Positions 11,487-15,360 of a DNA stretch of 34,522 nucleotides are shown piece after piece. Origin of the DNA: an uncultured Clostridia bacterium (GTDB taxonomy: Bacteria > Bacillota > Clostridia > Christensenellales > Borkfalkiaceae). Position 1 is the stretch's first letter. Every line of letters begins with the position of its first letter. The stretch is taken from the NCBI GenBank assembly GCA_944372515.1, contig CALVZM010000005.1, positions 1 through 34,522 on the forward strand, given 5' to 3'. A model generated the notes under the pieces. It searched no databases. It was not told the DNA's origin and worked only from the letters and a program-made list of their open reading frames with translations. Made by a program: the position numbers and the translations under genes.

Positions 11487-11705
11487 TCAATAGTCCCGCA
11501 GTCCGAGAATGTAATCGGCGGAAACGTCCAGCGCCTTGCACAGCGCGGCAAAAGTATCCAGCCGCGGCAGTTTTTTTGTGGTCGCGTATTGGGTGATCAT
11601 TTCGGGCGAAACGCCCACTTTCCGCGCGATCTCCGTCGTCGTCAGTCCGCTGTTTTTGATCTCTTCCCGCAACCGCCGTTTGATGACTTGTCCCGTTTCG
11701 TTCAT
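11487..11705 (-). CDS. XRE-family transcriptional regulator
   Basis: This 72-residue minus-strand protein is a single Cro/C1-type helix-turn-helix domain. The HTH is LTTTEIARKVGVSPEMITQY (about residues 21-40), followed by the typical LPRLDTFAALCKALDVSADYILG. It has no extra ligand or peptidase domain, so its signal, if any, is unclear. GAGAGGGA precedes the ATG at 11705. Two matching operators lie just upstream, one on its own promoter side and one in a divergent promoter, so it probably represses itself and the divergent transcript. The open frame upstream of the chosen start runs through these operators and is not likely to be translated. Confidence 0.88.
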   Translation of the reverse strand: MNETGQVIKRRLREEIKNSGLTTTEIARKVGVSPEMITQYATTKKLPRLDTFAALCKALDVSADYILGLRDY

Positions 11706-11733
11706 AAACCGTCCCTCTCTTAGCCTCAAAATA

Positions 11734-11775
11734 TAACTAATGGTTAGAAAATACTTGACAAATAACCATTGGTTA
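11734..11775. promoter_or_regulatory. Paired operators of the XRE regulator
   Basis: Two 13-bp sites match at 11 positions: TAACTAATGGTTA (11734-11746) and TAACCATTGGTTA (11763-11775). Both have inverted halves (TAAC...GTTA), and their centres are 29 bp apart. The first overlaps an AT-rich -10-like sequence (TATATT on the minus strand) for the regulator gene. The second fills the spacer of the divergent plus-strand promoter. They are inferred binding sites of the adjacent XRE protein. Confidence 0.75.
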
Positions 11776-11782
11776 GTATACA
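11755..11782 (+). promoter_or_regulatory. Divergent promoter overlapping the second operator
   Basis: TTGACA (11755-11760) is followed by TATACA (11777-11782, 16-bp spacer) or TACAAT two bases further (18 bp). The spacer is almost entirely the second operator, so the XRE protein should block this promoter. Transcription would begin near 11789. Confidence 0.75.
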
Positions 11783-11821
11783 ATAACAAAAGAGAAAGGA
11801 TTCGTTGCGGAGGGACGTTTT

Positions 11822-11884: not shown

Positions 11885-11891
11885 GTGTAAG

Positions 11892-11930
11892 GGAGCGCCC
11901 CGCGGCTGTTTGCCGCGGGGCGCTCCTTTT
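11892..11930 (+). terminator. Strong terminator of the divergent short transcript
   Basis: A perfect 15-bp stem (11892-11906 with 11912-11926) with loop TGTTT is followed by TTTT. It ends the transcript that starts near 11789, giving an RNA of about 140 bases. Confidence 0.88.
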
Positions 11931-12064
11931 CGTCCTTCGTTTTTTCGTTCGGCACGGACATGCTCCCCGCCAAAAGGCGTCTTTCGCCGCCGAACAGGAA
12001 CGCGCGGTGAGTCAAGGCAGTGCGGCGGGGAAGAAACGCAATATAATTTGTATATTTTTTGCAA

Positions 12065-12092
12065 TTGACTTTCTACGGGGGGGGGGTATAAT
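12065..12092 (+). promoter_or_regulatory. Esterase lipoprotein promoter with a G10 tract, likely phase-variable
   Basis: TTGACT (12065-12070), a 16-bp spacer and TATAAT (12087-12092). The last ten bases of the spacer (12077-12086) are an unbroken run of G that touches the -10. Slippage by one base would give 15- or 17-bp spacing and change promoter strength. The leader downstream contains a perfect hairpin, GCATTTCG (12112-12119) with CGAAATGC (12124-12131). Confidence 0.75.
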
Positions 12093-12172
12093 AAAATCGT
12101 CCATATAATCGGCATTTCGTTGCCGAAATGCATACGGACGAAAAATCAAACGGTATAAGGGAGGATTTACAC

Positions 12173-14569
12173 ATGAAAAGCAAAAAGATCCAAAGCGTCC
12201 TGCTCGGGCTCGTCTTCGCGCTTTCCGCTCTGTTTATGACGGTGGCGGCGGGTTGCGATTTTTCAGACGGCGATTCTTCGGGCAGCGCTTCCGCGGGCGG
12301 TGATTCTTCGGGCAGTGATTCTTCGGGCGGCGGACAGACGGTCGCCGTGTCCGAGGTTTCGTTGGACGAAACGGCGCTTGCATTGGAGATCGGGGAAAGT
12401 TACACGCTCACCGTAACGGTCAAACCCGCCGACGCGACGGACAGGGACGTGGAATGGTCCACGGACGATGCCGCCGTCGCCACGGTGTCGGGCGGCAGGG
12501 TAACGGCAGTCGGCGAGGGGCAAGCCGTCATCACCGCGGAAGCGGGCGGCAAGAGCGCAACGTGCACCGTTACCGTCAGCCAGCCCGCCGTCGACGTGGT
12601 GGACGTCATCCTCTTCACGGTGCAGTCCAACATGGTCGGGCGGGAAACTTCGCCGTATTCCGTCAGCATTCCCGCGGACTATGCCTATGAATATAAATAC
12701 AACACGGACAGCCTGACGGCGCTGCGCAATCCCGTCGGCGAAAAACTGAAAGCGGCGGAACCGTCCAGCGGTTCGAGCATCGTGCCGCAGTTCTGCGCCG
12801 ATTACGTGGCGAAAACGGGCAGAAAGGTCGTCGCCGTACACGTGGCGCGCGGCGGGCAGGAGATCGCCAAGTTCGCGCCCGGACAGACGCTGTATAACGA
12901 CATCGTAACCAAGTTCACCGCCTGCCTCGACTATCTCGAAGAAGCGGGCACGTTCGAGATCGGCCGCACGTTCTACGTCATGTATCAGGGCGAGTCCGAC
13001 TCTCGGAACTCCAATACGATGGCAACCACGTCCAAAGAACAATACATGAAAACCTACATGCAGTTCCACAACGGGCTGCAAGCGGCGTTCGATTTTGAGT
13101 TCGGCGCCATCATCTATACGGGCAGAAATACCTATGAAAGCCTTGCAGGTGTCAAGACGGTCAACGCGGCGCAGAACCAACTTGCCTTGGACAACGAGGA
13201 CATCATCGTCTGCGACAAGGCGCCCGCCAATTACTACCTCTTCCACACCGATTACATGCTTTCGGACAACGTGCACCTGAACGCGGCGGGTCTGCGTAAG
13301 GTCGGCTCCGATTCCTGCCGCGCCGTGCTCGATTACATGGGGCTCGGCGATCCCGAAAAGGCGGGCGTGGATCCCGCGACCTATCTTGCCGAACCGATCT
13401 ATGAAGTGGCGCCTGCGAGCGGGGCTTATGAATGGAACTTCGACGAGGGGGACATGTCCGAGGCGAGCGGAAGATTCACGGCGACCAAAGTGGGGGAAGG
13501 CGAAGCCGTGTTCAAGGACGGCAAGTACACGCACGCGGCGGACGGTTCCAGCGTCTATTGGGAACTCTCCGCGCCCCTGCTCCTCTCCAAAGACCAGAAT
13601 TGGACCATGGAGTGGAAGGGCAAGAGCGGCAGTCCCATGAACGGGCACGCCGCGGTGCTCCTCACCAACGGCGCCAACGTCTTTGTTACTTTCCAGGAAA
13701 CCAACGGCATCTATCTGCGCAACAACGACGCAAGGGCGCAGTTCAAGGACGTTGTGGGCGAGATCTATACCGAACACGTCTGGAAACTTTCCTATGACAG
13801 CGCGGCAGGGCAGGTCGAACTCTTCATGGACGGCGTATCCAAGGGCAAACTTGCGTGGAACTCCGACCTCACTTTCACCCATCTTTTCGGCGCGACTAGC
13901 ACATTAGGCGGCGCTTCCGACAACTCCGACAACAACTATTCCTTCGTCGGCGAACTCGACTATCTGAAAATTGCCGCCGAGGACGAGGCGGAACCGCCCG
14001 CTCCCGCGGCAGATGGCTATGAATGGAACTTTGACGAGGGGGACATGTCCGAGGCGAACGGGCTTCTCACGGCGACCAAAGTGGGGGACGGCAGCGCCGT
14101 ATTCACGGACGGGAAATACACGCACGCGGCGGACGGCTCCAGCGTCTATTGGGAACTCTCCGCGCCCGTCAAACTCTCCAAAGACCGGAATTGGTCGATC
14201 GAATGGAAGGGCAAGAGCGGCAGTCCCATGAACGGGCACGCCGCGGTGCTCCTCACCAACGGCGCCAACGTCTTTGTTACCTTCCAGGAAACCAACGGCA
14301 TCTATCTGCGCAACAACGACGCAAGGGCGCAGTTCAAGGACGTCGTGGGCGAGATCTATACCGAGCATGTCTGGAAACTTTCCTATGACAGCGCGTCGCA
14401 TCAGGTCGAACTCTTCATGGACGGCGTGTCCAAGGGCAAACTTGCGTGGAATGCCGACCTCACTTTCACCCATCTCTTTGGCGCGACGAGCACATTAGGC
14501 GGCGCTCCCGACAACAACTATTCCTTCGTCGGCGAACTCGACTATCTGAAAATTGCCTTGGGCGCATAA
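12173..14569 (+). CDS. Surface lipoprotein: Ig-like domain, SGNH/sialate O-acetylesterase-type domain and two lectin-like modules
   Basis: This 798-residue protein has a lipoprotein signal peptide with Cys28 in VAAGC and a Ser/Gly/Asp linker (31-54). A BIG2-type Ig-like domain follows (about 57-137). Residues 142-390 are an SGNH-type carbohydrate esterase domain like sialate O-acetylesterase or CE6: nucleophile Ser152 in VQSNMVGR, the YQGESD block (271-276), and Asp365/His368 in SDNVHLN. The C-terminus holds two nearly identical ~180-residue modules (419-601 and 616-795) with a LamG/concanavalin-like pattern (YEWNFDEGD start, VELFMDGVSKGKL, YSFVGELDYLKIA end), likely binding glycans. AGGGAGG precedes ATG 12173. 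Deacetylation of host or dietary glycans at the cell surface is inferred. Confidence 0.85.
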   Translation: MKSKKIQSVLLGLVFALSALFMTVAAGCDFSDGDSSGSASAGGDSSGSDSSGGGQTVAVSEVSLDETALALEIGESYTLTVTVKPADATDRDVEWSTDDAAVATVSGGRVTAVGEGQAVITAEAGGKSATCTVTVSQPAVDVVDVILFTVQSNMVGRETSPYSVSIPADYAYEYKYNTDSLTALRNPVGEKLKAAEPSSGSSIVPQFCADYVAKTGRKVVAVHVARGGQEIAKFAPGQTLYNDIVTKFTACLDYLEEAGTFEIGRTFYVMYQGESDSRNSNTMATTSKEQYMKTYMQFHNGLQAAFDFEFGAIIYTGRNTYESLAGVKTVNAAQNQLALDNEDIIVCDKAPANYYLFHTDYMLSDNVHLNAAGLRKVGSDSCRAVLDYMGLGDPEKAGVDPATYLAEPIYEVAPASGAYEWNFDEGDMSEASGRFTATKVGEGEAVFKDGKYTHAADGSSVYWELSAPLLLSKDQNWTMEWKGKSGSPMNGHAAVLLTNGANVFVTFQETNGIYLRNNDARAQFKDVVGEIYTEHVWKLSYDSAAGQVELFMDGVSKGKLAWNSDLTFTHLFGATSTLGGASDNSDNNYSFVGELDYLKIAAEDEAEPPAPAADGYEWNFDEGDMSEANGLLTATKVGDGSAVFTDGKYTHAADGSSVYWELSAPVKLSKDRNWSIEWKGKSGSPMNGHAAVLLTNGANVFVTFQETNGIYLRNNDARAQFKDVVGEIYTEHVWKLSYDSASHQVELFMDGVSKGKLAWNADLTFTHLFGATSTLGGAPDNNYSFVGELDYLKIALGA
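13427..14557 (+). repeat. Tandem duplication of a 180-codon module
   Basis: Unit 1 is 13427-13975 (183 codons) and unit 2 is 14018-14557 (180 codons), separated by a 14-codon Glu/Pro/Ala linker. By my count they differ at about 16 residues plus a three-residue indel. Long stretches, such as 13609-13803 against 14200-14394, differ at only a few silent sites. This points to recent duplication or gene conversion. Confidence 0.92.
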
Positions 14570-14684: not shown

Positions 14685-14922
14685 TGCGGCGGGAGAAAGA
14701 AACGCATATAATTTTTATGCGCTTTAACATTTGACTTTTTACGGGGGAGGGGTATAATAAAATCGTCCATATAATCGGCAGTTCGTTGCCGAAATATATA
14801 CGGATGAAAAATCAAACGATATAAGGGAGGATTTACACATGAAAAGCAAAAAGATCCAAAGCGTTCTGCTCGGGATCGTCTTCGCGCTCTCCGCTCTGTT
14901 CATGACGGTGGCGGCGGGCTGC
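14685..14922 (+). repeat. Second copy of the promoter, leader and signal-peptide cassette
   Basis: This segment matches 12021-12256 closely: the same -35 and -10 boxes, the ATCGTCCATATAATCGGCA leader stretch, the ribosome binding site and the codons for the signal peptide up to the lipobox Cys. Similarity stops right after the Cys codon, where the two proteins become unrelated. Confidence 0.88.
14731..14758 (+). promoter_or_regulatory. Promoter of the second lipoprotein gene, G-tract interrupted
   Basis: TTGACT (14731-14736), a 16-bp spacer and TATAAT (14753-14758) repeat the esterase promoter almost exactly, but the G-run is GGGGGAGGGG (14743-14752), broken by one A. That should make it stable against slippage while keeping the same spacing. 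Confidence 0.8.
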
Positions 14923-15360
14923 AAAATCGCCGTGCAGGATGAAAACACTTCCGGTGCGGGCAACAGCGGCGCGGCAGGCGATTTCGTCGGAGAAAAATTG
15001 TCCGCAGATGAATGGAACGATGCGCTCGTTCTGTCGCTCGGCAATTTTTCCATGACGAATGAAGTGATAAAATCGGACGATTCCCGAGCGATCGGAGCAA
15101 AGTGCGACTTCCGATTCGACGGAAAGAATGCGTTGCCGGCGATCGACGCAGACGAAAATACCGTGGAGAGCGATGCGGAAGGCTATTTCTTTACTTATAC
15201 CGACGGGGAATGCCGGGGATATGCCTGTGAGAACGGCGTCCGGACAGAAGTGAGTTTGGACGGGATCGGCATGACGGGCGTATCCCGCTTTCTCGTTTTT
15301 GCCGCGTTTCGGAAGAAAAAGGGGCGAAAGAAAGATAAAATTATGAAAGCGGAAGCATAA
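14839..15360 (+). CDS. Short lipoprotein of unknown function, possibly C-terminally degraded
   Basis: The 173-residue product starts with the same signal peptide as the esterase lipoprotein (one change in the first 28 residues) and has its lipidated Cys28 in VAAGC. The mature part begins with a Gly/Ser/Asn linker, then a SADEWNDALVLSLGNFSMT segment. This resembles the start of small beta-rich lipoproteins I have seen in Clostridia, but I cannot name a family. A YFFTYTDGECRGYACENG stretch follows. The end, FRKKKGRKKDKIMKAEA, is very basic and unlike a folded domain end, which suggests truncation by an old frameshift or deletion. No terminator is obvious before the rpsB promoter. Confidence 0.7.
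   Translation: MKSKKIQSVLLGIVFALSALFMTVAAGCKIAVQDENTSGAGNSGAAGDFVGEKLSADEWNDALVLSLGNFSMTNEVIKSDDSRAIGAKCDFRFDGKNALPAIDADENTVESDAEGYFFTYTDGECRGYACENGVRTEVSLDGIGMTGVSRFLVFAAFRKKKGRKKDKIMKAEA

What the first reader, a model, noticed from the sequence alone, without database searches (positions are those of the whole stretch)
12065..12092. Run of ten G between -35 and -10: candidate phase-variable promoter of a surface esterase
An unbroken G10 tract fills the 3' part of a 16-bp spacer between TTGACT and TATAAT. Homopolymer runs in this position switch surface genes on and off in other bacteria (for example Neisseria porA) by slipped-strand changes in spacer length. The gene behind it encodes a surface lipoprotein with an esterase and glycan-binding modules, a typical target. 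The sister promoter at 14731 has the same spacing but an A interrupting the G-run, a natural stable control.
Basis: partly seen in the sequence, partly recalled or inferred. Interest (0 to 1): 0.62.

Follow-up and report, generated by a model that had tools for sequence, protein, structure and literature searches.

The report
Poly-G switch promoters of surface genes
In this uncultured gut bacterium and many of its relatives, promoters of surface-protein genes carry a run of about ten Gs between their two RNA-polymerase contact sites, most likely a copying-slip switch that turns single genes up or down at random; switches of this kind are known from pathogens such as Neisseria, but no report of them in this group of gut bacteria was found.

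Summary
G-runs alone are unremarkable in this window, but their position is not. Of 18 G9+ tracts in the 1.57-Mb genome (one junk contig end aside), 11 follow a TTGAC -35 on the sense strand. In 151 genomes of the family the same geometry occurs 80 times; reversed controls give 0 and poly-C gives 4. Ordinary promoters have 17-nt spacers (78/95). Pure poly-G promoters almost never do (2/60), while interrupted tracts return to 16-18 (11/13). One promoter shared with a sister species is nearly identical around the tract but has G9 versus G6. The tracts precede surface genes (77% versus 42% for ordinary promoters). Within the genus, a shared direct repeat (GCAAT...GCAATTGAC) marks a subset that includes this promoter; all 12 intergenic copies lead into a G-run. 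Best reading: slipped-strand variation of promoter spacing, as in Neisseria porA, used on many loci in Christensenellales. Read-level variation and expression could not be tested, and no relative carries this particular esterase promoter, so its own variability is inferred.

The parts
12038..12065 (+). Direct repeat GCAAT (12038-12042) and GCAAT (12061-12065, overlapping the -35), probable regulator site shared by a subset of poly-G promoters
   Evidence: 12 of 12 intergenic copies in the genus lead into a G-run promoter; reversed control 0
12065..12070 (+). -35 element TTGACT
12077..12086 (+). G10 tract filling the 3' part of the 16-nt spacer 12071-12086
12087..12092 (+). -10 element TATAAT
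12098..12140 (+). 5' leader hairpin, also present behind the sister promoter
   Evidence: -19.2 kcal/mol for the 78-nt leader, z -2.69
12160..12164 (+). Ribosome-binding site GGAGG
   Evidence: read from sequence
12173..14569 (+). Gene for a lipoprotein with Big_2 and SASA carbohydrate-esterase domains and two similar C-terminal repeats
14731..14758 (+). Sister promoter with interrupted tract GGGGGAGGGG (14743-14752), same 16-nt spacing
14764..14806 (+). Leader hairpin of the sister promoter
   Evidence: z -2.71
14839..15360 (+). Gene for a 173-aa lipoprotein behind the sister promoter; signal peptide nearly the same as that of the esterase
   Evidence: (no Pfam family)
11890..11931 (+). Terminator-like hairpin with T-run that separates the promoter from upstream transcription
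   Evidence: read from sequence

Best explanation
The G10 run is a slippage-prone tract whose length sets the distance between -35 and -10. Replication slippage adds or removes single Gs and moves the spacer through strong (near 17 nt) and weak lengths, so cells of a population differ in transcription of the downstream surface gene. At this locus the assembled G10 gives 16 nt; G11 would give 17, G9 15. It is one of at least 11 such promoters in the genome. Shown here: position, purity, family-wide recurrence, abnormal spacing, tract-length differences between near-identical promoters, surface-gene targets. Inferred: slippage within a clonal population, the dependence of expression on length, and a shared regulator acting through the GCAAT repeat.
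For: Genome: G9+ tracts at C5, C8, C18, C20, C29, C31, C38 (two), C43, C69, C73 all lie on the sense strand just after TTGAC, ten of them before a -10-like hexamer; C69 ends in the tract. Longest G-run in 100 canonical spacers is bimodal: 5 or less in 95, 10 in 5, none 6-9. Family: 80 matches in 29 of 151 genomes, reversed control 0; poly-C 4. Spacing: ordinary 78/95 at 17 nt; pure poly-G 2/60; interrupted 5/13 at 17 and 11/13 at 16-18 versus 20/60 for pure, p=0.001. Tract length hardly compensates the rest of the spacer: slope -0.13, where -1 would hold the total fixed. Length differences: G000:C38 versus G003:C26, 93% over 321 bp, two substitutions in about 165 bp next to the tract, G9 versus G6; sulfatase-maturase orthologues G10 versus G8; paralogues G10/G9, G9/G8, G11/G10. 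Targets: 116/151 surface or membrane versus 28/67 for ordinary promoters (p=1e-6); lipoproteins 41/151 versus 5/67.
Against: No reads or conspecific strains could be examined, so variation of this very tract was not seen; no relative among 40 has the whole esterase gene. Genome G139 has 19 poly-G promoters all with G8, mostly of one sequence with a 15-nt spacer, and G043 has several with G9 and 15 nt, which looks fixed rather than wandering. MutS is present, which would lower slippage. The G over C bias (80 to 4) is not explained by spacer slippage alone. The ordinary-promoter baseline comes mainly from one genome, and the pattern search needs long tracts, so the shortage of 17-nt spacers is partly ascertainment.
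Confidence: 0.78

Rival explanations
1. The G-run is a fixed promoter element: a binding site or DNA-structure element (for example G-quadruplex or A-form spacer) for a regulator that activates promoters of abnormal spacing, and its exact length matters little or is held constant.
For: Strong preference for G over C on the non-template strand; constant tract lengths within G139 and G043; shared upstream direct repeat in the genus.
Against: Pure tracts dominate (52 of length 9 or more versus 12 with a middle interruption), whereas a G-rich site should tolerate interruption; interrupted tracts go back to canonical spacing; near-identical promoters differ by 3 G; spacers run from 13 to 25 nt.
Confidence: 0.15
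2. The long G-runs are sequencing or assembly artefacts, such as false G calls of two-colour chemistry or wrong homopolymer lengths.
For: Contig C78 ends in G-rich junk; poly-G promoters lie near contig ends more often than expected (7 versus 2.4).
Against: Sense-strand placement between -35 and -10 in independent genomes, zero reversed controls, conservation at orthologous genes, and presence in genomes recorded under isolate strain names: Pumilibacter muris and P. intestinalis, and the complete Treponema ruminis genome.
Confidence: 0.03
3. The tracts are mutational by-products, neutral length polymorphisms in weak promoters with no selected switching function.
For: Spacing is scattered and some relatives lack the feature: only 29 of 151 genomes match the strict pattern.
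Against: Concentration in spacers rather than intergenic DNA at large, enrichment before surface genes, retention at orthologous genes across species, and none of the 6-9 G intermediates expected from drift among the canonical promoters of the own genome.
Confidence: 0.1

Closest known systems
Neisseria meningitidis porA (poly-G spacer) and opc (poly-C promoter) phase variation (van der Ende 1995, Sarkari 1994; titles seen in the reference list of PMC5084427; details from general knowledge)
   Same: Homopolymer between -35 and -10 of a sigma-70-type promoter; surface protein downstream; spacing sets transcription.
   Different: Uncultured gut Clostridia; at least 11 loci in one genome; G strongly preferred over C; shared upstream direct repeat in a subset; no expression data.
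Bifidobacterium breve G-tract slippage at sortase-pilus genes (PMC9187656)
   Same: Gut commensal, G10-G11 tracts, surface structure; tract length shifts in the mouse gut.
   Different: There the tract is inside the coding sequence and changes the frame; the authors only mention other G-tracts in promoter spacers.
Invertible promoters of gut bacteria (Bacteroides, Clostridioides difficile; review PMC11868660)
   Same: Random ON/OFF transcription of surface and glycan-use genes in gut bacteria.
   Different: Site-specific inversion between inverted repeats, not slippage.
Neisseria nadA, repeat-length variation combined with the NadR repressor (PMC2791445, abstract)
   Same: Repeat length combined with a regulator at the same promoter, as the GCAAT repeat may do here.
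   Different: Tetranucleotide repeat that alters spacing of distal promoter elements, not of -35 to -10.

Membership tests
Promoter-spacer homopolymer phase variation (porA type) | Uninterrupted homopolymer between -35 and -10 | tested here: met
Promoter-spacer homopolymer phase variation (porA type) | Tract length differs between otherwise near-identical promoters | tested here: met
   (G9 versus G6), for other loci of the class
Promoter-spacer homopolymer phase variation (porA type) | Length variation at this very tract (12077-12086) | tested here: inconclusive
   no orthologue of the whole gene in 40 relatives
Promoter-spacer homopolymer phase variation (porA type) | Transcription depends on tract length | not testable with these tools
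   only indirect: interrupted tracts have 16-18-nt spacing
Promoter-spacer homopolymer phase variation (porA type) | Reversible switching in a clonal population | not testable with these tools
   no reads held
Promoter-spacer homopolymer phase variation (porA type) | Surface-exposed target | tested here: met
Invertible promoter | Inverted repeats and recombinase at the promoter | not tested
   no dedicated search; the promoter is explained by the tract
MerR-type activated promoter | Spacer of 19-20 nt with a palindromic operator in it | tested here: not met
   spacer is 16 nt and filled by the G-run

The most novel reading that the evidence does not exclude
A lineage-wide contingency regulon in Christensenellales: a common upstream regulator site (GCAAT direct repeat) decides when the regulon may be on, and independent poly-G spacers decide at random which surface enzymes (sulfatase with its maturase, GH3 glycosidases, esterase, lipoproteins) each cell uses, so that glycan use is partitioned among cells.
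Probability: 0.35. Interest if true: 0.8.

Novelty: new member of a known kind. Interest (0 to 1): 0.62.

Why it matters
Slippage switches are known mostly from host-restricted pathogens. Here they appear as a main promoter class for surface genes in a large, mostly uncultured group of gut Clostridia, including cultured Pumilibacter species in which the idea can be tested. If so, assembled genomes of these bacteria record one arbitrary state of many switches, and single-cell differences in glycan and mucin-sulfate use should be common. Interrupted tracts offer natural locked controls.

Tried and rejected
Scan of viral contigs for near-identical copies with different tract lengths: only 5 hits, no pairs used. 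Search for the esterase in relatives: only domain-level hits apart from the own gene, so no direct length comparison at this tract. Loss of MutS as a cause of instability: MutS is present above cut-off. The dip at 17 nt as proof of OFF bias: kept as support only, because the length threshold of the pattern cuts off short tracts. Maturase homologue in G004 as a fourth orthologue: only 42% identical, no G-tract seen in the upstream stretch read. Papers joining Christensenellales and phase variation: none in the held library.

Full report
Observation. The sequence is as described: TTGACT 12065-12070, ten G at 12077-12086, TATAAT 12087-12092, spacer 16. The sister promoter at 14731 has GGGGGAGGGG and the same spacing; the two 49-bp cores differ at two sites. 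A run of eight or more G in this window is not in itself unusual against dinucleotide shuffles. The gene behind it encodes a lipoprotein with Big_2 and SASA esterase domains. The window is one contig (C5) of a 1.57-Mb genome in 96 contigs.

Genome-wide pattern. Searching the genome for G9 or longer and reading the contexts showed that 11 of 18 tracts (leaving out a G-rich, junk-like contig end, C78) lie on the sense strand directly behind TTGAC, ten of them before a -10-like hexamer; the eleventh (C69) ends the contig. Among 100 canonical promoters listed from the genome, the longest G-run in the spacer is 5 or less in 95 and exactly 10 in 5, with nothing between; runs of A and T show no such gap. 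So the tract belongs to a distinct promoter class, not to a tail of G-rich spacers.

Family-wide pattern. In 151 genomes of the same family the geometry TTGAC - G8 or more - TATAAT occurs 80 times in 29 genomes, with 0 for the pattern read backwards. Poly-C in the same place occurs 4 times. RpsB of the window is 75% identical to that of Candidatus Borkfalkia faecigallinarum and 62% to Pumilibacter, so the host is most likely a Borkfalkia-like member of Christensenellales (inference).

Spacing. Ordinary promoters of the genome have 17-nt spacers in 78 of 95 cases. Pure poly-G promoters of the family have 17 nt in 2 of 60 distinct cases. Tracts with one interruption, including the window's sister, have 17 nt in 5 of 13 and 16-18 nt in 11 of 13, against 20 of 60 for pure tracts (p about 0.001). 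In a wider set of 141 distinct motifs 11 have 17 nt, against 28 of 41 ordinary promoters from the same loci. Tract length hardly compensates for the rest of the spacer (slope -0.13; -1 expected if total spacing were conserved). Pure tracts thus behave as if their length were not held, and interrupted tracts as if locked at working lengths. Caution: the search needs long tracts, which removes some 17-nt cases, and near-identical promoters in G139 (19 copies, all G8) and G043 have constant tracts.

Length variation. The cleanest pair is G000:C38 and G003:C26, two species of the genus: 93% identity over 321 bp, two substitutions in about 165 bp beside the tract, and as the only indel there G9 against G6. 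The sulfatase-maturase orthologues (82% identical) carry G10 and G8; a small membrane-protein gene carries G10 in one species and GGGGGAGGGG in the other; GH3 glycosidase genes of both species carry G10. Paralogous promoters inside other genomes differ by one G. For the esterase tract itself no comparison exists, because no relative searched has the whole gene.

Targets and regulator site. The first genes behind poly-G promoters encode predicted lipoproteins in 41 of 151 cases and any membrane or exported protein in 116 of 151, against 5 and 28 of 67 behind ordinary promoters (rule-based classification). In the own genome they include a sulfatase operon with its maturase, a GH3 glycosidase, a LytTR response regulator, lipoproteins and this esterase. 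A direct repeat GCAAT-N17-GCAATTGAC, its second half overlapping the -35, occurs 15 times in five genomes of the genus with no control match; 12 copies are intergenic and all 12 lead into a G-run promoter, the other 3 lie within reading frames. The window's promoter is one of them, with one extra base between the halves. This suggests a common regulator on top of the random switch (inference).

Mechanism and comparison. Slippage in the tract changes the -35/-10 distance, as in Neisseria porA; the steps not shown are slippage in a clonal population and the effect on transcription. Bifidobacterium breve shows that G10-G11 tracts in a gut commensal do slip and that lengths shift in the host (PMC9187656), though there inside a coding sequence. 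No paper in the held library joins Christensenellales with phase variation; that library lacks most subscription journals.

Verdict. Observation confirmed; interpretation supported and extended from one locus to a promoter class. New member of a known kind, on an unusual scale.

Noticed in passing
window 11487-11790: Reverse-strand reading frame resembling an XRE-type regulator (by eye); beside it a TTGACA promoter within the inverted repeat TAACCATTGGTTA and a terminator-like hairpin about 120 nt on: possible autoregulated gene with a short transcript on the other strand.
   Followed up: no
window 12098-12140 and 14764-14806: Leader hairpin kept behind both promoters, z about -2.7 in each.
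   Followed up: partly
G000:C78:28668-28756: Contig end made of long G-runs broken by single T, probably an assembly or sequencing artefact.
   Followed up: no
family genomes: Poly-G outnumbers poly-C 80 to 4 in the same spacer position; the cause of the strand preference is unknown.
   Followed up: partly
G139 (family scan): Nineteen poly-G promoters in one genome, all G8 and mostly near-identical with a 15-nt spacer, possibly a spread gene or promoter family.
   Followed up: no
G000:C35:2899-2907: G9 inside a reading frame whose start resembles prolipoprotein diacylglyceryl transferase (by eye); slippage there would shift the frame.
   Followed up: no
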